Positions 37,726-51,877 of a DNA stretch of 64,000 nucleotides are shown here, piece after piece. The stretch spans positions 62,001 to 126,000 of the forward strand of contig CCMQ01000017.1 of assembly GCA_000751835.1 (NCBI GenBank), read 5' to 3'. This DNA comes from Necropsobacter rosorum (GTDB taxonomy: Bacteria; Pseudomonadota; Gammaproteobacteria; Enterobacterales; Pasteurellaceae). The notes beneath the pieces are model-generated. The model was given only the letters and a program-made list of their open reading frames with translations. It was not told the origin of the DNA and made no database searches. Made by a program: the position numbers and the translations under genes. Every line of letters begins with the position of its first letter. Positions within the stretch are counted from its first letter, which is position 1.

Positions 37726-38514
37726 ATGAATAAATTGAAAGGTAAACTTCAGCGTTTTTATGCGTTTGATGAATTATTAAAGCAACTTGTTCTTCGTGAT
37801 ATTAAATTAAAATATCGACGCAGTTATTTAGGATATCTTTGGAGCATCCTTAATCCTTTATTGTTAATGACAGTTCTGGTATTGGTATTTTCTAATTTAT
37901 TTCAGCGCAATGTGCCTAATTTTCCGCTTTATTTAATTTCAGGACAGATTCTTTTTTATTTTATGGTTGAAGCTACCAATTCCTCGGTAACTTCGATTCG
38001 AAATAATTCTTCGTTAATTAAAAAAACCTATGTACCTAAATATATTTTCACTTTATCGAAAGTAGGTAGCTCGGTGATGAACTTACTGTTTTCTTTAGGA
38101 GCGTTACTTTTGGTGATGATTTTTACTCGGGCCGAGGTTTCTTGGTATTTGCTATTGGCACCATTTGTTCTTATTCAAGTAGCTACATTTAGCCTTGGAA
38201 TTAGCTTGTTTTTAGCAGCGTTTACCGTATTTTTCCGTGATATTCAGTATTTATGGGGCGTTTTTACTACTATGTGGATGTATATGACGCCTATTTTTTA
38301 TCCTACCTCGATTATTCCTGAACGATTTCTTGCTTGGTATAAAGGATTGAATCCGATGTATTGGTATATCGAACAATTCAGAGATATTATTCTTTATACT
38401 AAAATGCCACATCCCGAATCAATAATGATTGGATGTTCAATCGCATTGGTATCTTTGATCTTAGGTACTTGGTATTTTAATAAAAAACAAGATGAATTTA
38501 TTTTATACATATGA
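37726..38514 (+). CDS. wzm: Polysaccharide ABC exporter, membrane subunit (Wzm type)
   Basis: The 262-residue ABC-2-type permease has about six membrane segments and the family pattern near its N-terminus, LVLRDIKLKYRRSYLGYLWSILNPLLLM, then VFFRDIQYLWGVFTTMWMYMTPIFYP and LNPMYWYIEQFRDIIL. Such subunits (Wzm, KpsM, TagG) export undecaprenyl-linked O-antigen, capsule or teichoic acid across the inner membrane. It is the first gene after the promoter and overlaps the ATPase gene by four bases. The family assignment is firm; the exact polymer is not known. Confidence 0.85.
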   Translation: MNKLKGKLQRFYAFDELLKQLVLRDIKLKYRRSYLGYLWSILNPLLLMTVLVLVFSNLFQRNVPNFPLYLISGQILFYFMVEATNSSVTSIRNNSSLIKKTYVPKYIFTLSKVGSSVMNLLFSLGALLLVMIFTRAEVSWYLLLAPFVLIQVATFSLGISLFLAAFTVFFRDIQYLWGVFTTMWMYMTPIFYPTSIIPERFLAWYKGLNPMYWYIEQFRDIILYTKMPHPESIMIGCSIALVSLILGTWYFNKKQDEFILYI

Positions 38515-40728: not shown

Positions 40729-43700
40729 ATGTCAAATATAGGTAGTCGTTTTAGAAAATTAATCACTGACCCTAAAACTACGATAAAGAAAATACATCAT
40801 AAATTTAAATATGATCGCAAAGGAGCCTGGTATTTAATTTCATCTGAGTTGAATGGTGATAGTAAGTTACTTTATCAGAAAGTCAGAAAACATTTGCCTT
40901 TGAAATATAAAGGTAGCAGTTATTTTACTATTATTTCTGCTTGTTATAATGTGGAAAAATACTTAGACGAGTATTTTAAAAGTATTGTTGCACAAAGTTT
41001 AGATTTTAAAAAACATATTCAAATTATTTGTGTAGATGATGGATCGCAAGATAATACTGCGGCCATTATTAAAAAATGGCAGAAAAATTATCCTAAAAAT
41101 ATTCATTACATTTATAAAGAAAATGGCGGCCAGGCATCTGCACGAAATTTAGGACTAGAATATGTTGAAACAGAATGGGTAACATTTATTGATCCTGATG
41201 ATTTTATATCGGCCGATTATTTTAGGGAGATAGATGATGCAATCAGTCTTGATCCTAGTTTACTTGTATTGGTTTCTAATCTTCAATTTTACATGGAATC
41301 TCAAGGCATTGTAAAAGATGGACATCCTTTAAAATTTAGATTTAAAAATAAGAAAAATAAATATAATATCCTAGATCTTAAAGATACGATTAATTTGTCA
41401 GCATCATCCAGTATGTTTAAAACTGATATTATTAAAAGTAATAATATTATGTTTGATCATAGGGTTAGACCGAACTTTGAAGACGGGAAATTTATTTCAG
41501 ATTATTCTCTCGTTTGTGGTAATGGTAGTTTGGTTTATCTGAAGGATTCTGTGTATTTTTATAGAAAGCGGCAAGATGAAAGTTCTACTATTGACACCTC
41601 TTGGACTAAGCTGGAAAAGTATAGCAATGTTCTTGAATTCGGTTTTATTCCGATGTTGGAAAATTACGCTAATAAATTTGGCTTAGTTCCTAAACATATC
41701 CAGAGAACTGCATTATATGATATGTCTTGGTATGTTAAATATCTGTTAAATAACAAAGAAAAAATTTCTTTTTTATCAGATGAACAAAAAAAATATTTTT
41801 TAGAATTATTAATAAAAATATTCTCTTTTATTGATCGAGATATTATTTTAAATTTTAATCTGGCCGGAATCTGGTTTATGCATAAAGTTGGTATGCTCGG
41901 TTTATTTAAACATGAACATATTAATAGTAATATTATTTATATTGAAAACATAGACAGAGAAAAAAAGCAGATTTTGCTTTCTTTTTATACCTATTTTGAT
42001 GAATTGGAATATATAGAATTAGGTGGTAAAGAAATTTTCCCAGTATATGGGAAAACAGTTATTAATAATTTTGGAAATAAATTCTTTGTAAAAGAAAAAA
42101 GATACTGGATTCAATTTAATGAATTAAATGATATTTTAAAAATTACATTAAATAAGAATAATGGCCGTATTTCTTTATTTGGAAAACAATATAAGGAAAT
42201 TAAAATATCAGAAATTATTTCTAGATTTAAACCATCTGAAAAATATGCATCAGATGATAGCTGGTTATTAATGGACAGAGATATACAGGCTGACGATAAT
42301 GCAGAACATTTATATCGATTTATCAAAAATAATTATCCGAGTAAAAAATGTTATTTTGCTTTAAATCGCAATTCTCATGATTGGCAGCGATTGGAAGATG
42401 AAGGTTTTAATCTTGTTGACTATGGTACAAAAGAATTTGAAAAAATACTTTGTCGTTGTTCTCGTATTATTAGTAGTCATTTAGATCGATATATAAATAA
42501 TTATTTTGGTGACGAATATCAGTATAGTAAAAAGTATGTATTTCTCCAACATGGAATTACTAAAGATGATATGTCCTCCTGGTTTAATGGAAAAAAGAAC
42601 TTGCAGTGTTTGATCACAAGTACTTTTTCAGAGTTTGCATCTATAGCAGATGGAGATAGTTATAAATTATGTCGTAAAGATGTTGTTCTGACTGGTTTTC
42701 CACGCCATGATGCCTTATTAGCCGGAAATCAGGCAGGGAGTAAAACTATATTAATAATGCCTACATGGCGGCAAAGCATTGTAGGGCATATTATAGCAAA
42801 CGGTAATCAAAGAGAATTAAATAAAGAATTTATGCTTACCGATTATGCTCAAAATTGGTCTGCAGTTTTACACTCTGATAGATTGAAAATGCTGAGTGAG
42901 AAGTACGGATATAAAGTGGTCTTTGCTCCTCATGCAAATATAGAACCTTATTTAGAACAGTTTACGGTTCCGGAATATATTTCTATATGGAGTGCTAAAA
43001 CATCTCATGAGAGTATTCAGGAATTGTTTCAAACATCTAAATTGATGATTACAGATTTTTCATCTGTTGCCTTTGAGATGGCTTATCTAAGAAAACTAGT
43101 TATTTATTTTCAATTTGATGCTAAAGAAGTTTTTTCATCACAATCGCATATCTATAAAAAAGGTTATTTTTCCTATGAGGAAAATGGTTTTGGTCCGGTT
43201 ACCGAAACTGCAGATGATTTATTAAATGAATTGGAAAAAGCATTAGAAAATAATGGTGAACCGTTAGAACCGTATAAGACTAGAATTGAAGAAACATTTC
43301 CATTTCGGGACGGTAAAAATTGTGAGCGGGTATATCAAGCAATTAAAGCACTGGATGAACCGGAAACAAAAGAAATTGATTTGGATGTTTTACAAGAGTT
43401 TGTTTGTTCCGCTTATAAAAATAGAATTTGGGATTCGTTATTTTCTCGTTGTGAGCTATTAGAAAAGTACGGTAATGAGAAGCAGCAAAGACAGGTACAA
43501 GATATTAAGCTCTACGCTCTAGCGAATACGTTTCAGTTTGAAACTTTAGAAACGACTCTAAAGGAATATACAGAATATAATCCTTTAGTTATCGAGATTA
43601 GAGCGATACAAATGTTTTTACAAGAGGAATGGCAACGAGCTATTGATTATTTAACTGCACTTTCCACATTAAACCGAGAGCAGCAATTTATGCTATTACG

Positions 43701-44535
43701 TTGTTATGCGGAATTAAAACAATCCGATGAATTAGAAAAAATAATTACCGGACTGTCAGATTTAACCTCAAACGAAAGAATCATTTGTAATTGTTGGTTA
43801 TTAGCAAGCCAAGATAATTGGGCTGCTGTTGCGGAACTTTTAAATGATAATATGGTGCAATTTACCCAACATGAGCTTGAATTTTATAAGCCGGAATTAT
43901 TGTTAGCTCGTGCGTTTAGAATGCTGGGACAGTATGATGATTGCCATAATCAGCTAGCGCATTATGAGAAATATACAAATGATGATTCCGATTGCCATAT
44001 AGAAATTGCACATTTGTCTTTTGCAAGACAAAAATATGGTAAAGTACTTAGTCAGTTGGCAAAAGCGTCTTTTGGAAATTTTGTTTATTTACCAAAATAT
44101 TCGTTAATTGAATTTTTAATTTCATTAGATAAAATTGATAAACTCAATGAGTTGAGTGAGCTGATTAATGAGATTATAGAAAAACGAGGCTATGATACGG
44201 ATATTTCATTAGTGATCGTAAATATTTTGGTCAAATATAAGGAATGGAAAAAAATATTATTATTGGCTCCTCCTCTTTATGAGCAAAGACCTGAAGAGGT
44301 TATTTATCCTTTGGTATTAGCAAATGTACGGATAGGATTAATTAAAGAAGCTTATAAACTGCATCTTAAGCCGACTTCGGATTCTTTATATGAGTATTGG
44401 GAAATTATATGTGATTTAGCATTGATCCAAGGTGATCTTGAATTGGCCCGATATTGTCTTTCCAATATGATTGCTATTTTTCCAGAGAGAAATAAAGAGG
44501 CTAATTTACAGAATTTAATATCACTATCTAAGTAA
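40729..44535 (+). CDS. GT2 glycosyltransferase fused to CDP-glycerol-type glycerophosphotransferase, with C-terminal repeat-like helices
   Basis: This very large protein has 1268 residues. Residues 65-320 form a GT-A family 2 glycosyltransferase (FTIISACYNVEKYLDEY, DDGS at 103-106, GGQASARNLGLEY, DPDD at 155-158). Residues about 510-890 form a TagF/TagB-like poly(glycerophosphate) transferase domain: FLQHGITKDD near 603, PHANIEPYL, and TDFSSVAFEMAYL near 773. The last 380 residues are helical and look like TPR-type repeats. It could add a sugar and a polyol phosphate in turn. No CDP-glycerol synthase (TagD) gene is nearby. The start at 40729 follows GGAG; an in-frame start at 40699 is possible. 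Confidence 0.8.
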   Translation: MSNIGSRFRKLITDPKTTIKKIHHKFKYDRKGAWYLISSELNGDSKLLYQKVRKHLPLKYKGSSYFTIISACYNVEKYLDEYFKSIVAQSLDFKKHIQIICVDDGSQDNTAAIIKKWQKNYPKNIHYIYKENGGQASARNLGLEYVETEWVTFIDPDDFISADYFREIDDAISLDPSLLVLVSNLQFYMESQGIVKDGHPLKFRFKNKKNKYNILDLKDTINLSASSSMFKTDIIKSNNIMFDHRVRPNFEDGKFISDYSLVCGNGSLVYLKDSVYFYRKRQDESSTIDTSWTKLEKYSNVLEFGFIPMLENYANKFGLVPKHIQRTALYDMSWYVKYLLNNKEKISFLSDEQKKYFLELLIKIFSFIDRDIILNFNLAGIWFMHKVGMLGLFKHEHINSNIIYIENIDREKKQILLSFYTYFDELEYIELGGKEIFPVYGKTVINNFGNKFFVKEKRYWIQFNELNDILKITLNKNNGRISLFGKQYKEIKISEIISRFKPSEKYASDDSWLLMDRDIQADDNAEHLYRFIKNNYPSKKCYFALNRNSHDWQRLEDEGFNLVDYGTKEFEKILCRCSRIISSHLDRYINNYFGDEYQYSKKYVFLQHGITKDDMSSWFNGKKNLQCLITSTFSEFASIADGDSYKLCRKDVVLTGFPRHDALLAGNQAGSKTILIMPTWRQSIVGHIIANGNQRELNKEFMLTDYAQNWSAVLHSDRLKMLSEKYGYKVVFAPHANIEPYLEQFTVPEYISIWSAKTSHESIQELFQTSKLMITDFSSVAFEMAYLRKLVIYFQFDAKEVFSSQSHIYKKGYFSYEENGFGPVTETADDLLNELEKALENNGEPLEPYKTRIEETFPFRDGKNCERVYQAIKALDEPETKEIDLDVLQEFVCSAYKNRIWDSLFSRCELLEKYGNEKQQRQVQDIKLYALANTFQFETLETTLKEYTEYNPLVIEIRAIQMFLQEEWQRAIDYLTALSTLNREQQFMLLRCYAELKQSDELEKIITGLSDLTSNERIICNCWLLASQDNWAAVAELLNDNMVQFTQHELEFYKPELLLARAFRMLGQYDDCHNQLAHYEKYTNDDSDCHIEIAHLSFARQKYGKVLSQLAKASFGNFVYLPKYSLIEFLISLDKIDKLNELSELINEIIEKRGYDTDISLVIVNILVKYKEWKKILLLAPPLYEQRPEEVIYPLVLANVRIGLIKEAYKLHLKPTSDSLYEYWEIICDLALIQGDLELARYCLSNMIAIFPERNKEANLQNLISLSK

Positions 44536-44540
44536 GTTTT

Positions 44541-44570
44541 AAAGAGTAGAATCATCTACTCTTTATTCTT
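44541..44570 (+). terminator. Terminator-like hairpin inside the polysaccharide cluster
   Basis: AAAGAGTAGA (44541-44550) pairs perfectly with TCTACTCTTT (44555-44564) with loop ATCA, followed by the T-rich ATTCTT. It would end or reduce transcription after the large transferase gene. Confidence 0.7.
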
Positions 44571-44587
44571 TATGTGAGTAATTATCT

Positions 44588-45823
44588 ATGATAGAAAAAA
44601 GAGAGCATAAATATAGAGCTAGTAATAGTGTTGAGATTATTTATAAATATAAACCTAGAAAATATGATTTTAATCACTTACTTATTGTTTTTTCAGGTTT
44701 TCTGCATAAATATCCGGGTAATTACGATTTTAATAATGCACTTGATGATTGCCCCGCAGATGTTATCTGGATTAATGATAACTTTGAAGAGATGTACACA
44801 TATTATCTCTGTATTAATATGGACTTTAAAGTTGAAGAGGCGGTTACAGAATTTATTAATTATAAAATAAAAGAGTTCGGATTAGATTATCAAAATGTAA
44901 CTATTACCGGGTTTTCAAAGGGTGGAAGTGCCGCATTATATTATGGTCTGAAATTGCCAGTCGCTAATATTGTAACAACTGTACCCCAAATAAAAATAGG
45001 AACTTATCTTGTTAATACTTGGGAGCATGTTGCGCGTCATATGATGGGGGAGCTAACAAAAGCTAAACAAGATTATTTAGACAAAATTATTATTAAGTTA
45101 TTAAAAAAAGAAAGATATTTTAATAAAAACATTTATCTTTTAACTTCTGAAGCGGATATTCAGTATGAACCTGAGATTAAACCGATATTAGAAGATTTAA
45201 GAAAATATTCTAATTTTAATTTGATTAAAACTTATTCGGTATTCTGTCGCGAACATAATCAGATTACATCTCATCATACGGCGATTTTACTTGGTTTATA
45301 TTATTGTTTGGCATCGGAAGCAACACCAATATTTCAGCATAATGAAGTTAACTTTTTTGGCTCACAGCCCTTGCCTTTATCATCAATGAAAAAGAAAGCT
45401 GAAGCTATTGTTGATACTAGAGGATTAAGTATAAAAGAAGATACTTTATTTATAGAAGGCGTTGCTATTTTACGAGGATATAATCTTATTGAGTATAAAG
45501 ATGTTGACTATCAACTGATTTTAAAAGGTAAGAAAACGATAAGAAAAACCTTGGCTAATTTGAATAAGCCTTATTTAACTAAAGAATTTTTTGATGGGAA
45601 AAATCTGGTTATTTATGATAAAGGATGGTTTACTACTCCTCAGAATCAAGGGATTGATATATCAGATATTCCGACAGATAAGTATGAGCTATTTATAAAA
45701 ATTTCAACTCATAGTATTTCCAAAAGACTTCCTTTAGTCACAAATAAGAATTTTAATAGAGAGAGTGAAAAGTATCATATTTCATCTGAAAATTCTAAAA
45801 TAATATTAGAACTAAAAAAATAG
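44588..45823 (+). CDS. Unassigned alpha/beta-hydrolase-like polysaccharide-locus protein
   Basis: The 411-residue protein is not recognised with certainty. Its N-terminal 240 residues look like an alpha/beta-hydrolase fold: a GFSKGG nucleophile elbow puts Ser110 after a beta strand (NVTITGFS), Asp190 lies in LLTSEADIQYEP and His229/230 in ITSHHTAILLGLYY, a plausible Ser-Asp-His triad in order. The remaining 170 residues are beta-rich and of unknown type. No signal peptide or membrane segment is seen, so it should act in the cytosol. It might be an esterase or acyltransferase acting on the polymer, or resemble Asp2/XcbB-type proteins; this is inference. It lies just after a terminator-like hairpin. 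Confidence 0.6.
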   Translation: MIEKREHKYRASNSVEIIYKYKPRKYDFNHLLIVFSGFLHKYPGNYDFNNALDDCPADVIWINDNFEEMYTYYLCINMDFKVEEAVTEFINYKIKEFGLDYQNVTITGFSKGGSAALYYGLKLPVANIVTTVPQIKIGTYLVNTWEHVARHMMGELTKAKQDYLDKIIIKLLKKERYFNKNIYLLTSEADIQYEPEIKPILEDLRKYSNFNLIKTYSVFCREHNQITSHHTAILLGLYYCLASEATPIFQHNEVNFFGSQPLPLSSMKKKAEAIVDTRGLSIKEDTLFIEGVAILRGYNLIEYKDVDYQLILKGKKTIRKTLANLNKPYLTKEFFDGKNLVIYDKGWFTTPQNQGIDISDIPTDKYELFIKISTHSISKRLPLVTNKNFNRESEKYHISSENSKIILELKK

Positions 45824-45877: not shown

Positions 45878-47593
45878 ATGTTAGACATGTTAAATAGACT
45901 TATATGTGCGGTTGTGAAGGGAATAAAAGATCCTAGGCTTGTTTTTAAGGTAATTAATTCTATAAAACAATATGGCATAAGATATACAATAAAAAAAATT
46001 ATATCCCCTTATCTTGGTGATAATAAGTTCGATCTGCCGGAAATAGATATATATAAACAGGATACTATCTATATTCTGACAACTAAGCATTGTTATTTTA
46101 TTGCAAGACTGCTTCAGATTAATTTTAATAAATTAGCGTTAAACGCAGAGATTATATTTAAGCCGCCTAAAGAAGGATTCGGCAAGGGATTACATTGTGT
46201 TATTTGTCCGCAGATGTTTAATCAGTTGCCGAATCACTATGTCGCATTTCAATTAGAACAATCCGTCAGTTCTCGTTGGTTTACACCGGAATATATTGAT
46301 AAGTTAAAAAATGCTTATTCAATATTTGACTATTCTCTGGATAACATTACTTATCTTCAGACTCAAGGACTGTCTTATCGGCAGATTTATTTTATGCCGC
46401 TTGCTTATCAAAAGGATTATTTTGCAGAGAAAGCGGTTCATGAACAGTATGACGTTTTATTTTATGGTGATATAAAGAACCAGCGCAGAAAGGCATATCT
46501 TGATGTGATTACAAAACGATTTAAAACTAAAGTGATAAAAAATGTATTTGCGGATGAACTATATAAAGAAATTAGTAAAGCTAAAATTATAGTCAATATT
46601 CATTATTATGATGACGCTTTATTAGAAACAACCCGGCTCTATGAATGCTTATCCCTTAATAAACTGATAATTTCAGAAACCAGTGTCGATCTAGAATTAC
46701 ATGATGAAATTAAAAATACGGTTGATTTTGTAGAAGTCGGCGATATTGATCAAATGTGTCAGCATATTACTTTCTGGTTAACGAATAGTGAATTGAGAGA
46801 GAAAAAAATTAAGAAAAATAGCGCTTATCTGCAGCAATCGAAAAATATGTTTGAATATTATTTTATGCGTTTTATGTTGGCAAACGATTGGTTGAGTTTT
46901 GCCGATTTTTATAAAATAGCCGGACATCACATCGAATTCAAACATGATTTTATTTGTCTAGGATTACCGGAATCGACGAAAAGAACACAAGCTTTTATGC
47001 AACAAAATCACAGGAATATTCAGATATTTCCGGGACTAAGGCATAAAAAGAGTTGGCTGGGATGCGGAATGAGTTATAAATTTATTCTGCAAAAGGCAAA
47101 GGATCTTGGTCTATATATGGTGACTGTTTGTGAAGATGATGTGGAATTTTTTCAGAATTTTGAGGAAGATTATATTGAAATAAAAAGATTTCTTGCGCAG
47201 GATAAACAATGGGATTTATTCTCCGGGCTTATTGCCGATGTCAGTGATCATATTAAAATTTTGAAAACGAAAAGGGAAGGCGATAAGGAGTATATTTATA
47301 TCGATAAAATGACCAGTATGGTGTTTAATATTTATTCACATCGTTTTTATGATAAGTTATTGTCATGGGATGAAAAGAACCATAATGTGGAAGAAAATAC
47401 CATTGATCGTTATCTGGAATCTCATGCTGATTGTGTGACCATAACGACAATTCCATATCTTGTGGGACACAAGGAAAATATTGAGTCCACGCTATGGGGA
47501 ATTAAAAATGATGTTTATTCTGAAATGATTAAAAATAGTGAGCGGAAATTAACTAATAAAGTAACAAAGTATAAAGACGATATAAAATGTTAA
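45878..47593 (+). CDS. Two-domain glycosyltransferase: CgeB-like N-terminal part and GT25-like C-terminal part
   Basis: The 571-residue protein joins two transferase-like halves. Residues about 60-330 resemble CgeB/GT4-type GT-B enzymes (VLFYGDIKNQRRKAYLD, DDALLETTRLYECLSLNKLIISE). Residues about 355-560 resemble family 25 LPS glycosyltransferases: WLGCGMSYKFILQKAKDLG and the acidic motif CEDDVEFF with EDD at 419-421 match the GCxxSHxxxxxxA...EDD pattern, though the usual His of SH is Tyr here. The cytosolic face of the inner membrane is its expected site. It overlaps the next gene by seven bases. Donor sugars are unknown. Confidence 0.7.
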   Translation: MLDMLNRLICAVVKGIKDPRLVFKVINSIKQYGIRYTIKKIISPYLGDNKFDLPEIDIYKQDTIYILTTKHCYFIARLLQINFNKLALNAEIIFKPPKEGFGKGLHCVICPQMFNQLPNHYVAFQLEQSVSSRWFTPEYIDKLKNAYSIFDYSLDNITYLQTQGLSYRQIYFMPLAYQKDYFAEKAVHEQYDVLFYGDIKNQRRKAYLDVITKRFKTKVIKNVFADELYKEISKAKIIVNIHYYDDALLETTRLYECLSLNKLIISETSVDLELHDEIKNTVDFVEVGDIDQMCQHITFWLTNSELREKKIKKNSAYLQQSKNMFEYYFMRFMLANDWLSFADFYKIAGHHIEFKHDFICLGLPESTKRTQAFMQQNHRNIQIFPGLRHKKSWLGCGMSYKFILQKAKDLGLYMVTVCEDDVEFFQNFEEDYIEIKRFLAQDKQWDLFSGLIADVSDHIKILKTKREGDKEYIYIDKMTSMVFNIYSHRFYDKLLSWDEKNHNVEENTIDRYLESHADCVTITTIPYLVGHKENIESTLWGIKNDVYSEMIKNSERKLTNKVTKYKDDIKC

Positions 47594-48504
47594 GCATAAC
47601 TCTTATTGTTCCGACTTTTAATGCTGGTGATTTGTGGGTTGAATGGATTGCACAATTAAAGCTTCAAACGATTCGAATTGAAGAAGTTATTGTGATTGAT
47701 TCCTCATCGGTAGATAACACGGCCAATTTAGCTAAACAGGCCGGTTTTTCGACTTATTGTATTGAGAAATCAGATTTTAATCATGGTCGGACGCGCAATC
47801 AAGCGGTAATGCTTTGTAAAAAGGACAGCGACATTTTGGTTTTTCTTACCCAAGATGCACTATTAGCAAGCGCAGATGCTTTGCAATGTTTAGTCAATTG
47901 TTTTAGTGACGCCTCGGTTTCAGCAGCTTATGGTCGTCAGCTGCCGCATAAAGATGCAAATCCTATTGCGGCACATGCCAGACTATTCAATTATCCCGCC
48001 CATTCAGTAACTAAGGAAAAACGTGATATTACTGAGTTGGGTATTAAAACGGCTTTTATGTCTAATTCATTTGCGGCTTATCGACGTTCTGTCTTTACCG
48101 CGTTGGGCGGATTTCCAAATGATGTTATTTTGGCAGAAGATATGTATTTGGCGGCTAAAATGATTTTAGCGAATTATAAAATTGCCTATTGCGCTGACGC
48201 TATGGTGTATCATTCCCATAATTATTCTTATTGTCAGGAAGTTAAACGTTATTTTGATACGGGAGTATTTCACGCCAAGGTGCGGTGGATAAAAGAAAAT
48301 TTTGGCGGCGTAAAGGGCGAGGGGAAAAAATTTGTTATTTCGGAATTGAAGTATTTGCTCAAGCATGCTCCATTATGGATCCCTAAAGCTATGCTGACGA
48401 CCTTGTTTAAAGCAATCGGGTTTAAATTGGGGTTGAACTGGAATAAACTGCCGAAATATATAATAAAAAAATGCAGTATGCATAAAGGTTATTGGGAAAG
48501 ATAA
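47587..48504 (+). CDS. GT2 glycosyltransferase, RfbN-type rhamnosyltransferase
   Basis: The 305-residue GT-A family 2 enzyme has the pattern of O-antigen rhamnosyltransferases: [14 protein letters not shown], the NHGRTRNQA segment, LTQDALLAS and the [19 protein letters not shown]...[10 protein letters not shown] run. The four dTDP-L-rhamnose genes follow directly, which supports rhamnose as donor; linkage and acceptor remain open. It overlaps the upstream gene by seven bases and lies only 8 bases before rfbB. Confidence 0.8.
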
Positions 48505-48512
48505 GGGAAATT

Positions 48513-49583
48513 ATGCGCAAGAAAATTTTAGTTACCGGGGGCGCCGGTTTTATTGGTTCCGCCGTGATTCGCCATATTATTACCGATACGCAGGATTCGG
48601 TTATCAATCTTGATAAGCTCACTTATGCCGGTAATTTAGAATCGCTCAAATCGGTAGAAAAACATGCTCGTTATGCTTTTGCGCAAGTTGATATATGTGA
48701 TAAGTCTGCATTGGAGCGCATTTTTACACAATATCAACCCGATGCTGTTATGCATTTAGCGGCGGAAAGTCATGTGGACCGCTCGATTGATAGTGCCGCG
48801 GCTTTTATTCAAACCAATATTGTGGGAACTTATACATTACTTGAAGTGGCACGCCATTATTGGGATGATTTATCCTTTGAAAAAAAAGAGGTTTTTCGTT
48901 TTCATCATATTTCAACGGACGAAGTTTATGGGGATTTAGAAAGTCGTACGGATTTATTTACTGAAACCACAGCTTATGCTCCAAGCAGTCCTTACTCCGC
49001 ATCAAAGGCCGCCAGTGATCATCTTGTGCGTGCATGGGGGAGAACTTATGGCTTGCCGATCATCGTGACAAATTGTTCCAATAATTACGGCCCTTTTCAT
49101 TTTCCTGAAAAGCTGATTCCATTAATGATTTTAAATGCCCTTGAGGGTAAGGCGTTACCGGTTTACGGTGACGGTCAACAAATTCGTGATTGGTTGTTTG
49201 TCGAGGATCACGCCCGAGCGTTGTATAAAGTTATTACGCAGGGAAAAGCGGGTGAAACTTATAATATTGGCGGACACAATGAAAAAACGAATATTGAGGT
49301 CGTGCGGAGTATCTGTCGTTTATTGGAAGAATTAGCGCCGAATAAACCGCAAGGTGTGGTTAACTATGAGGATTTGATCTTGTTTGTTGCAGACCGTCCG
49401 GGACATGATGTTCGTTATGCGATTGACGCGACCAAAATTAGTCGTGAACTTGGCTGGAAACCGCAAGAAACTTTTGAAAGTGGTATTCGTAAAACGGTGA
49501 ACTGGTATTTACATAATAAAACGTGGTGGCGCCGAGTGTTGGACGGTAGCTATAATCGTGAACGCTTAGGAGTAAGAAAATGA
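48513..49583 (+). CDS. rfbB: dTDP-glucose 4,6-dehydratase
   Basis: The 356-residue short-chain dehydrogenase/reductase has the NAD-binding [33 protein letters not shown] and the catalytic [10 protein letters not shown] (Tyr-x3-Lys). It makes dTDP-4-keto-6-deoxyglucose, step two of dTDP-L-rhamnose synthesis. ATG 48513 is favoured by an AGGGA site and by the family start; the frame opens at 48492. G+C content rises again from this gene on. Confidence 0.96.
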
Positions 49584-50458
49584 AAGGTATTATTCTGGCT
49601 GGCGGTAGCGGTACCCGTCTTTACCCTATTACCCGCGGTGTATCAAAACAGCTGTTGCCGGTTTATGACAAACCGATGATTTATTATCCGTTATCGGTGT
49701 TAATGTTAGCGGGTATTCGTGAGATTTTGATTATTACCACGCCTGAGGACAACGCCAGTTTTAAGCGTTTGTTGGGTGATGGTTCGGATTTCGGTATTTC
49801 GTTAAGTTATGCCATTCAACCAAGCCCTGATGGTTTAGCGCAGGCATTTTTGATCGGGGAAAAATTTATTGGTAATAGTTGTGTTTGCTTAGTATTAGGT
49901 GACAATATTTTTTATGGTCAACATTTTACCCAGACCTTAAAACAAGCCGCAAAGGATGCCGAGGCAGGAAAAGCGACTGTTTTCGGTTATCAGGTAAAAG
50001 ATCCTGAACGTTTTGGTGTATTAGCGTTTGATAATAACTTTAATGTACTGTCTATTGAAGAAAAACCGACAAAACCAAAATCGGATTGGGCAGTGACAGG
50101 CTTGTATTTTTATGATAATCGCGTGGTCGAATTGGCAAAGCAAGTACGACCTTCCGCCCGTGGCGAGCTGGAAATTACAACACTGAACAAAATGTATTTG
50201 AAAGACGGTTCTCTAAATGTACAGCTGCTGGGGCGTGGTTTTGCTTGGTTAGATACCGGTACGCATGAAAGTTTGCATGAAGCGGCGTCTTTTGTACGAA
50301 CTATTGAAAATGTACAGGATTTACATATTGCTTGTTTAGAAGAAATCGCTTGGCGTAATCATTGGTTAACGGCAGACCAGCTGAAAACTATTGCATATTC
50401 AATGAGTCAGAATGCTTATGGTCAATATTTATTACGCCTAATAAAAGACGATGAATAA
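49580..50458 (+). CDS. rfbA: Glucose-1-phosphate thymidylyltransferase
   Basis: The 292-residue nucleotidyltransferase has the N-terminal [29 protein letters not shown] signature split over residues 6-34 and [10 protein letters not shown]. It makes dTDP-glucose from dTTP and glucose-1-phosphate, the first step of the rhamnose route. The start overlaps the rfbB stop by four bases (ATGA). Confidence 0.97.
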
Positions 50459-51338
50459 CATGAAGCGATTTTTAGTTACCGGTTCAAAAGGTCAGGTAGG
50501 GCATTATGTGGTACAAAAGCTGACAGGAAAGGCGGAACTACTGGCCGTAAGCCATGATGAACTGGATATTACCGATGAAAGTGCGGTCAAAAAAATTGTC
50601 GAAAATTTTCGTCCGAATGCGATCATCAATGCTGCCGCCTATACCTCGGTAGATAGTGCCGAGAAGGACATTGCGCGTTGCGAAGCGGTTAATACAAAAG
50701 GTGCGGGAATGCTGGCCAACGCAGCACAACAGATTGACGCATTAATTTTGCATATTTCCACTGACTATATATTCAATGGTAAGCATAATGACTATTACAA
50801 AGAAACGGATCAACCTGACCCTCAAAATGTGTATGGACGCACAAAACTTGCAGGTGAAACAGCGGTAAGGCAAGCGAATCCGAAATCGATTATTTTGCGT
50901 ACTGCGTGGGTATTCGGCGAACATGGTAATAATTTTGTGAAAACAATGCTACGTTTAGGCAAAGAACGTGCCGAATTAGGCATTGTTGCCGATCAGATTG
51001 GTGGTCCGACGTATGCAGGCGATATTGCCGCTGCATTAATTAAAATCGCCTTTGATATTTTAAACGGTAAAACCGATGCGTTTGGTATTTATCATTTTAG
51101 CGGGCAGCCTTATGTCAGTTGGTTTGAATTTGCACGAACGATTTTTGCTGAGGCAAAAATGCAAAATATATTGGAAAATATACCGCACTTAAATGCAATT
51201 GCCACCAGTGATTATCCGACGCCGGCAAAACGCCCGGCAAATTCCCGCTTGGATTTAACCAAAATTCAGCAGACTTGGGGCATTGAGCCGAGCGATTGGA
51301 AAAAGGCGTTACAGAACTTAAAGGCATACGCAGAATGA
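50451..51338 (+). CDS. rfbD: dTDP-4-dehydrorhamnose reductase
   Basis: The 295-residue SDR-family enzyme has [11 protein letters not shown] near the N-terminus, [20 protein letters not shown] and the YGRTKLAGE active-site segment. It makes dTDP-L-rhamnose by reduction with NAD(P)H. The start overlaps rfbA by eight bases; an ATG three codons later (50460) is also possible. Two uptake sequences lie in the gene, the first ones after the 13.5-kb gap. Confidence 0.96.
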
Positions 51339-51877
51339 AAATTATCGAAACGAAAATCCCCGATGTAAAACTGTTAGAGCCACAAATTTTTGGTGATGAA
51401 CGTGGTTTTTTTATGGAAACCTTCCGCGACGAATGGTTTAAACAACATGTCGCCCAACGTACGTTCGTACAAGAAAATCATTCCAAATCCATCAAAGGCG
51501 TATTGCGCGGATTACACTATCAAACGGAAAATACGCAAGGTAAACTTGTGCGTGTGGTGCAAGGCGCAGTGCTTGATGTGGCGGTGGATTTACGCCGTAG
51601 TTCGCCAACATTTGGACAATGGGTCGGTGAAATTCTTTCTGCAGAAAACAAACGTCAACTTTGGGTTCCGGAGGGATTTGCGCACGGATTTTATGTGTTA
51701 AGTGAAACGGCGGAGTTTGTATATAAATGCACCGATTATTACAACCCAAAAGCCGAGCATTCTCTTATTTGGAACGATTCAACTGTCGCGATTGACTGGC
51801 AATTAGACGGAGAACCGAGTTTGTCGGCAAAAGATTTGGCGGGAAAAGTTTTATCTGAGGCCGTTTTATTTGAATAG
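51335..51877 (+). CDS. rfbC: dTDP-4-dehydrorhamnose 3,5-epimerase
   Basis: The 180-residue cupin enzyme has RGFFMETFRDEWF, GVLRGLHYQ and EGFAHGFYVLSE, the RmlC family pattern with the catalytic His in RGLHYQ. It epimerises dTDP-4-keto-6-deoxyglucose at C3 and C5. ATG 51335 overlaps the rfbD stop by four bases; a longer frame from 51296 is unlikely. Last gene of rfbBADC. Confidence 0.96.
   Translation: MKIIETKIPDVKLLEPQIFGDERGFFMETFRDEWFKQHVAQRTFVQENHSKSIKGVLRGLHYQTENTQGKLVRVVQGAVLDVAVDLRRSSPTFGQWVGEILSAENKRQLWVPEGFAHGFYVLSETAEFVYKCTDYYNPKAEHSLIWNDSTVAIDWQLDGEPSLSAKDLAGKVLSEAVLFE

What the first reader, a model, noticed from the sequence alone, without database searches (positions are those of the whole stretch)
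40729..44535. GT2 plus TagF-like phosphotransferase plus helical repeat in one 1268-residue protein
A sugar transferase and a CDP-glycerol-type phosphotransferase in one chain, encoded next to an ABC exporter, suggest a polymer with polyol-phosphate linkages, similar in plan to wall teichoic acid or to the glycerol-phosphate capsules of some Pasteurellaceae. The substrate cannot be read off, and no CDP-glycerol synthase is nearby. The C-terminal 380 helical residues have no clear function and could hold a partner protein or measure chain length.
Basis: partly seen in the sequence, partly recalled or inferred. Interest (0 to 1): 0.6.

Follow-up and report, generated by a model that had tools for sequence, protein, structure and literature searches.

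The report
Capsule-type polymerase in an O-antigen locus
The large protein is a known type of sugar-phosphate chain-building enzyme, normally used for bacterial capsules, which here sits in a gene set that looks built for the O-antigen of lipopolysaccharide; it most likely links sugars through sugar-phosphate bridges and not through glycerol or ribitol phosphate.

Summary
In detail: 40729-44535 encodes 1268 residues, GT2/GT-A, then TagF fold, then TPR-like helices. The arrangement is published: it is the GT-A/TagF-like/TPR plan of capsule polymerases such as Cps1B (PMC5974469), with similar motif spacing. In that subgroup the TagF-like part transfers hexose-1-phosphate from UDP-sugars. This fits a genome without a detected CDP-glycerol or CDP-ribitol synthase. 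Across 140 Pasteurellaceae genomes such a synthase occurs in 1 of 16 genomes with window-type polymerases, against 18 of 19 with other TagF proteins. So polyol phosphate is unlikely. The uncommon part is the context. Most Pasteurellaceae relatives sit in group 2 capsule loci beside a Stealth-family gene. The window has WbaP, Wzm/Wzt and rmlBADC next to pepB, no capsule genes, and a WaaL-like gene beside fba elsewhere in the genome, as in known Pasteurellaceae ABC-type O-antigen systems (PMC3989065). Three other Pasteurellaceae genomes have the polymerase with such Wzm/Wzt genes; one origin for all is rejected. Best reading: a cytoplasmic poly(oligosaccharide-phosphate) polymerase working on undecaprenyl-PP, with export by Wzm/Wzt and ligation to lipopolysaccharide. 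New variant of a known kind; chemistry untested.

The parts
40729..44535 (+). GT-A / TagF-like / TPR polymerase, 1268 residues
40924..41628 (+). GT-A (GT2) domain, residues ~66-300; DxD at D155/D157, ED at E251/D252
   Evidence: Pfam 67-228; fold match to TarS, Z 28.1; motif conservation
41932..42192 (+). small beta module between GT-A and TagF, residues ~402-488
   Evidence: strands in the model
42232..43362 (+). TagF-like domain, residues ~502-878; catalytic-type His H608 and H735
   Evidence: PF04464; Z 28.4 to TagF 3l7j; each His kept in 87 of 89 rows
43369..44535 (+). TPR-like helical domain, residues ~881-1268
37726..38514 (+). Wzm-type ABC-2 permease
   Evidence: PF01061; 72-74% identity to Wzm of L060, L065 and L066
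38511..39251 (+). Wzt-type ATPase, 246 residues, too short for a C-terminal sugar-binding domain
   Evidence: PF00005; best NCBIfam hits are teichoic acid export (TagH-type) and galactan Wzt models, below cut-off; 82-83% identity to Wzt of L060, L065 and L066
39259..40683 (+). WbaP-like undecaprenyl-phosphate hexose-1-phosphate transferase
   Evidence: TIGR03022 471.6 bits, cut-off 403
44588..45823 (+). XcbB/CpsF- and Asp2-like alpha/beta hydrolase, possible O-acetyltransferase
   Evidence: weak NCBIfam/Pfam hits, all below cut-off; homologue within 6 kb of the polymerase in 12 of 81 other loci
45878..47593 (+). glycosyltransferase with a Glyco_trans_1_2 part at its cut-off and a weak GT25-like part
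47587..48504 (+). GT2 glycosyltransferase, possible rhamnosyltransferase
   Evidence: PF00535; the rhamnose assignment is inference from the adjacent rml genes
48516..51877 (+). rmlB, rmlA, rmlD, rmlC: dTDP-L-rhamnose supply
   Evidence: each over its TIGRFAM equivalog cut-off

Best explanation
The protein is a bifunctional, probably processive polymerase of the GT-A/TagF-like family, working in an ABC-transporter-dependent O-antigen pathway. WbaP puts a hexose-1-phosphate on undecaprenyl phosphate, and the small glycosyltransferases add an adapter, possibly with rhamnose. The polymerase then alternates two steps in the cytoplasm: its GT-A domain adds a hexose with inversion, and its TagF-like domain adds a hexose-1-phosphate from a UDP-sugar, releasing UMP. 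The chain is thus a poly(oligosaccharide phosphate). The TPR domain holds the enzyme together as an oligomer and on its acceptor. The XcbB/Asp2-like protein may O-acetylate the chain. Wzm/Wzt exports it, and the WaaL-like ligase next to fba moves it to the lipid A core. Shown: gene content, predicted folds, conserved catalytic-type residues, absence of capsule genes and CDP-polyol synthases at the thresholds used. Inferred: donor sugars, linkage, priming, attachment to LPS, role of TPR.
For: Fold and motifs. Same plan as Cps1B (1246 aa; D133/D135, H587, H717): here 1268 aa with D155/D157, H608, H735. Hexose-1-phosphate: tested GT-A/TagF enzymes make sugar-phosphate polymers from UDP-sugars (PMC5974469); in this genome no TagD over cut-off, the one weak hit being HldE, and IspD only as the 231-aa gene, the two weak hits being GlmU and GalU; synthase in 1 of 16 genomes with window-type polymerases versus 18 of 19 with other TagF proteins, the one exception having its TagD beside a second, TagF/GT-B polymerase. 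O-antigen route: WbaP over cut-off; Wzm/Wzt 72-83% identical to those of three similar loci; no PF05159 and no Stealth CR2 (positive in G139 and G007) in the genome; no KpsC/S, CpxC/D or Stealth-type partner in the window; WaaL-like gene beside fba, as in H. parainfluenzae strain 15, where wbaP and waaL mutants lose O-antigen (PMC3989065). Locus next to pepB, also a border of the H. parainfluenzae O-antigen locus. G+C 0.345 against 0.50 outside, as expected for an exchanged surface-antigen locus. A same-genus genome has another O-antigen-type locus at the same lnt-pepB site.
Against: No biochemically tested enzyme was compared by sequence; Cps1B, CslB and Ccs2 sequences were not held. Fusion of GT2 to TagF does not by itself mean hexose phosphate: L035/L156 (G049) encodes a GT2-TagF fusion one gene away from an IspD-SDR (CDP-ribitol type) gene, though it is not of the window type. 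H. parainfluenzae O-antigen loci are bordered by glnA, the window's by lnt. Two of the three similar genomes, G009 and G007, also have KpsC/KpsS elsewhere, so whole-genome absence of capsule genes is seen only in G000 and G031. WbaP was not seen in the stretch held for G031. Attachment to LPS and repeat structure are unproved. 26 of 89 rows could not be given a context, some on short contigs.
Confidence: 0.65

Rival explanations
1. The TagF-like domain uses CDP-glycerol or CDP-ribitol, so the polymer is a polyol-phosphate (teichoic-acid-like) chain.
For: PF04464 family name; fold match to TagF and TarL; true TagF+TagD pair at the same site in a same-genus genome; a GT2-TagF fusion one gene from a CDP-ribitol type synthase in G049.
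Against: No synthase found in a genome rated 100% complete; window-type polymerases lack one in 15 of 16 genomes; the 18 window-type TagF domains form one group apart from those with a synthase.
Confidence: 0.08
2. The polymer is a capsule-like chain that uses the Und-PP/Wzm/Wzt route but is not ligated to LPS, or is anchored to another acceptor.
For: The polymerase is nested among capsule enzymes and keeps a TPR tail of capsule-type length.
Against: WaaL-like gene beside fba as in known O-antigen strains; no KpsC/KpsS in the genome and no Cpx-type export genes in the window.
Confidence: 0.15
3. The protein is not the chain polymerase: it adds one phosphate-linked cap or side unit to a rhamnose-containing chain made by the other transferases.
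For: Two further transferase genes and rmlBADC in the locus.
Against: Its characterised relatives of the same architecture polymerise alone without added primer (PMC5974469). One neighbour, 45878-47593, also has two weakly matched transferase parts, so the argument from being the only two-activity enzyme is not strict.
Confidence: 0.1

Closest known systems
Cps1B of Actinobacillus pleuropneumoniae serotype 1 and other GT-A/TagF-like capsule polymerases (CslB, Cps12B, Ccs2; PMC5974469)
   Same: domain order, length, DxD and two His at almost the same spacing, C-terminal TPR domain
   Different: those work in group 2 capsule loci; this one sits with WbaP and Wzm/Wzt, without KpsC/S, Cpx-type export genes or a Stealth-family neighbour
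Group 2 (ABC-type) O-antigen loci of Haemophilus parainfluenzae (PMC3989065)
   Same: Wzm, Wzt without a C-terminal extension, WbaP-like enzyme, pepB border, separate waaL next to fba
   Different: no TagF-like polymerase is mentioned for these loci in the sections and passages I read; the lnt border and rmlADC differ
Gram-positive wall teichoic acid pathway (TagO/A/B/F/GH)
   Same: undecaprenyl carrier, TagF-fold polymerase, ABC export of the finished chain
   Different: no CDP-polyol synthase found; probable sugar-1-phosphate units; probable transfer to LPS
Cps3D/Cps7D and C. jejuni HS1.09 (TagF/GT-B polymerases; PMC11666461, PMC11924219)
   Same: TagF-like domain (Z 25.8 to 8qoy) and a TPR domain
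   Different: GT-B partner, N-terminal TPR, CDP-glycerol donor

Membership tests
GT-A/TagF-like polymerase protein family (Cps1B type) | N-terminal GT-A domain with DxD | tested here: met
GT-A/TagF-like polymerase protein family (Cps1B type) | TagF-fold domain with two catalytic-type histidines | tested here: met
   H608/H735, each in 87 of 89 rows; Z 28.4 to TagF
GT-A/TagF-like polymerase protein family (Cps1B type) | TPR domain (in the majority of members) | tested here: met
GT-A/TagF-like polymerase protein family (Cps1B type) | glycosyl plus hexose-1-phosphate transferase activity | not testable with these tools
   needs purified enzyme
Group 2 capsule polymerase | gene lies in a kps/cpx capsule locus with KpsC/KpsS in the genome | tested here: not met
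Group 2 capsule polymerase | Stealth-family gene beside the polymerase, as seen here in the 13 Pasteurellaceae capsule loci (an observed companion, not a published definition) | tested here: not met
   (positive in G139 and G007)
ABC-dependent O-antigen locus | Wzm/Wzt exporter and phosphoglycosyl transferase in the locus | tested here: met
ABC-dependent O-antigen locus | O-antigen ligase in the genome | tested here: met
   PF04932 (Wzy_C, shared by ligases and polymerases) over cut-off, beside fba; ligase rather than polymerase rests on that position
ABC-dependent O-antigen locus | polymer found on LPS | not testable with these tools
   needs LPS analysis
Wall teichoic acid (polyol phosphate) polymerase TagF/TarL | CDP-glycerol or CDP-ribitol supply | tested here: not met
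   weak hits are HldE, GlmU and GalU; IspD itself is a 231-aa frame

The most novel reading that the evidence does not exclude
A capsule-type poly(oligosaccharide phosphate) polymerase has been moved, at least twice among Pasteurellaceae lineages, between the phospholipid-Kdo capsule route and undecaprenyl-PP, giving LPS O-antigens whose chain is built through sugar-1-phosphate bridges by a single TagF-like enzyme and exported by Wzm/Wzt: a wall-teichoic-acid logic on LPS. The polymerase would then be indifferent to its lipid primer, and the Stealth-family partner needed only for the capsule route.
Probability: 0.55. Interest if true: 0.6.

Novelty: new variant of a known kind. Interest (0 to 1): 0.48.

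Why it matters
How capsule polymers are joined to their lipid anchor was an open question recently addressed with transition transferases (PMC11666461). Natural relatives that work without the capsule linker genes would show which parts of the enzyme are tied to the primer. G007 carries both types: a capsule copy with a Stealth-family gene beside it and an O-type copy without one. The architecture also lets one predict phosphate-bridged O-antigens from sequence, relevant to serotyping and to glycoconjugate antigens.

Tried and rejected
Polyol phosphate as main reading: rejected for lack of a CDP-polyol synthase. Group 2 capsule: rejected. Novel domain fusion: rejected, the architecture is published (PMC5974469). 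The rule 'GT2 fused to TagF means hexose phosphate' was tested and is not general: L035/L156 (G049) is a GT2-TagF fusion one gene from an IspD-SDR gene. G037 is a TagF genome without a detected synthase; its protein groups with the CDP-ribitol type and its assembly has about 160 contigs. Of the 18 synthase-positive genomes with other TagF proteins, 9 have TagD over cut-off, 4 have TagD only below cut-off (110-130 bits, in 443-461-residue frames) and 5 have an IspD-like domain in a long frame; IspD-SDR was confirmed by Pfam in 4 of these 5, the fifth, G123, being a fragment with a partial TagF hit too. The p-value treats related genomes as independent and is descriptive. A JUMPstart/ops-like element was searched for in the window (pattern recalled) and not found beyond chance. 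The quick tree put the window with L060's first polymerase, but the careful tree gave no support for that pairing. The 'capsule' label for several Psychrobacter loci rests on partial KpsC-like hits only. The name CpxC for the 371-residue protein of L059 rests on position and size (no Pfam hit). That the Stealth-family neighbour is the transition transferase of the capsule route is my inference; the word does not occur in PMC11666461. Stealth CR2 rang in none of the 14 named control genomes, so G139 and G007 served as positive controls. Not found in print: in searches of the open-access PMC library I saw no paper placing a TagF-like polymerase in an ABC-type O-antigen locus, judging by listings and the papers opened; most subscription papers are not held. 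Papers: PMC5974469 (abstract, sections 4, 7, 8, 13, passages), PMC11666461 (abstract, section 14, passages), PMC3989065 (abstract, sections 23, 24, 29, 36, passages), PMC11924219, PMC11231755, PMC13171606, PMC2175527, PMC11481780, PMC11672688 (passages only); the others only as search listings.
Full report
What was checked. The frame 40729-44535 is intact. Pfam gives Glycos_transf_2 at residues 67-228 and Glyphos_transf (PF04464) at 512-872, both far over cut-off, and only weak TPR-type hits further on. Two AlphaFold models were made from the window protein and relatives from named genomes: residues 490-1268 (pLDDT 87.7, pTM 0.52) and 55-1250 (pLDDT 89.6, pTM 0.78). In the larger model the N-terminal part matches TarS, TarP and RmlT (Z 25-28) and the TagF part matches TagF (Z 28.4), the A. 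pleuropneumoniae serotype 3 enzyme 8qoy (25.8), TarL (25.6) and the capsule multienzyme 8a0c (25.2; Bcs3 by recall). The C-terminal part matches TPR subunits of APC/C at Z 25.4, well above the level of about 13 that the tool gives as possibly meaningless for helical repeats. A small beta module lies between GT-A and TagF.

The architecture is known. Litschko and co-workers (PMC5974469) described capsule polymerases with a GT-A/TagF-like or a TagF-like/GT-B plan, mostly with a TPR domain. Cps1B has 1246 residues, essential D133/D135, H587 and H717, and its TPR domain was removed by ending at 858. The window protein has 1268 residues, D155/D157, H608 and H735, and helices from about 881. Among 89 polymerase rows (window included; 7 duplicate loci and short or weak rows dropped beforehand), H608 is kept in 87, H735 in 87, D155 in 79 and D157 in 81 (gaps count as not kept).

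Hexose phosphate, not polyol phosphate. In the published GT-A/TagF-like enzymes the polymers are oligosaccharides joined by phosphate and made from UDP-sugars, while TagF/GT-B enzymes use CDP-glycerol (PMC5974469; HS1.09 in PMC11924219). The window's genome has no TagD over cut-off; the one weak hit is HldE. IspD is found as a 231-residue frame, and the two weak hits are GlmU and GalU. Over 140 Pasteurellaceae genomes, PF04464 is over cut-off in 35. Of these, 16 match the window protein over its TagF part (a 17th genome, G099, matched only the GT2 part). A TagD- or TarI-type gene occurs in 1 of the 16 and in 18 of the other 19; 4 of the 18 rest on TagD hits below cut-off. The one exception, G009, has its TagD beside a separate TagF/GT-B polymerase. 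G037 is the case without a synthase. The TagF domains of the window type (18 of 36 rows; one of 37 rows was not retrieved by the profile) form one group with support 100/99, in a tree with some long branches outside it. Against a simple rule, L035/L156 (G049) is a GT2-TagF fusion one gene from an IspD-SDR gene, but G049 has no match to the window protein.

The context is the unusual part. The family is Pasteurellaceae because contigs of several handles have the lengths of named records, such as G139 (Volucribacter), G009 (Actinobacillus vicugnae) and G042 (A. porcinus). Among the 16 genomes, 13 have the polymerase in a capsule locus with Cpx-type export genes and a homologue of the Stealth-type gene next to it; KpsC/KpsS lie in the same stretch in 9 of the 13 (G024 through L107). 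Stealth CR2 was confirmed by Pfam in 7 of 7 of these neighbours tested. Four genomes (G000, G031, G009, G007) have the polymerase with O-antigen-type Wzm/Wzt, G007 being in both lists. Wzm/Wzt of these loci are 72-83% identical to the window's. WbaP-like enzymes (about 62% identical) were seen in L065 and L066; the stretch held for L060 ends before such a gene could be seen. L060 lies, like the window, after galM-corC-lnt. The window's genome and G031 have no PF05159, while G009 and G007 have it elsewhere. Stealth CR2 is absent in G000, G031, G009 and G100 and present in G139 and G007, in the latter at the capsule copy only. In the wider set of 89 rows, 53 were labelled capsule, 10 Wzm/Wzt type and 26 other; the Wzm/Wzt rows include one Photobacterium and four Actinomycetota.

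Why O-antigen. PMC3989065 shows for Haemophilus parainfluenzae that O-antigen loci lie between glnA and pepB, that one group uses Wzm/Wzt and a WbaP-like enzyme, that wbaP and waaL mutants of strain 15 lose O-antigen, and that waaL lies between fba and orfH. The window's locus lies between lnt and pepB, and the genome's single PF04932 gene lies beside a class II fructose-bisphosphate aldolase gene. The locus has 34.5% G+C against 50% outside. The same-genus genome G100 has, at the same lnt-pepB site, a different locus with Wzz, a Wzx-type flippase, WbaP, glf and a stand-alone TagF with a TagD over cut-off. That is what a polyol-phosphate O-antigen locus would look like; the window's locus lacks the TagD.

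History. In a careful tree of 26 rows, holding the five O-type rows (four genomes) together is rejected (p-AU 0.0004), also without the long-branched one (0.0003). The labels came from gene context, but I had seen the quick tree before the test. More than one move between contexts is therefore likely; the tree cannot give the direction, though the O-type rows lie among capsule rows, and the nearest branching around the window is not resolved. The tail beyond residue 880 is 389 residues in the window and 192 in L060's first polymerase, but 92 or fewer in the other eight Wzm/Wzt-context rows; 24 of 53 capsule rows have 371-426. A full TPR domain is thus not a general feature of the Wzm/Wzt-context polymerases.

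Mechanism. WbaP starts a chain on undecaprenyl phosphate. Adapter sugars, perhaps rhamnose, follow. The polymerase then alternates GT-A transfer and TagF-type hexose-1-phosphate transfer. TPR promotes oligomerisation (shown for Cps1B) and possibly processivity and primer use (shown for Cps3D and Cps7D, PMC11666461). The XcbB/Asp2-like neighbour, with homologues near the polymerase in 12 of 81 other loci, may O-acetylate. Wzm/Wzt exports, WaaL ligates. All activity steps are inference from family knowledge.

Verdict. The finding is real and well described. Its polyol reading is unlikely, its fusion is published, and its context is a new variant: a capsule-type polymerase in an O-antigen pathway.

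Noticed in passing
L060 13381-16059: A second window-type polymerase directly after the intact one, with a degenerate GT-A active site (DxD to NxN, ED to SG) but both TagF-type histidines kept.
   Followed up: partly
window 44540-44565: A perfect 11-bp hairpin (loop of 4) right after the polymerase stop codon and before the next gene; possible attenuator.
   Followed up: no
window 44588-45823: XcbB/CpsF- and Asp2-like alpha/beta hydrolase; homologues lie near the polymerase in 12 of 81 other loci.
   Followed up: partly
L156 1397-6270 (G049; polymerase also L035): A different GT2-TagF fusion of 779 residues, one gene from an IspD-SDR (CDP-ribitol type) gene.
   Followed up: partly
L114, L119, L133: Eggerthellaceae (Actinomycetota) carry window-type GT-A/TagF polymerases in stretches that also encode Wzt/TagH-like ATPases.
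   Followed up: no
L071 (G100, same genus): The same lnt-pepB site holds a Wzz/Wzx-type O-antigen locus with stand-alone TagF, TagD and glf.
   Followed up: partly
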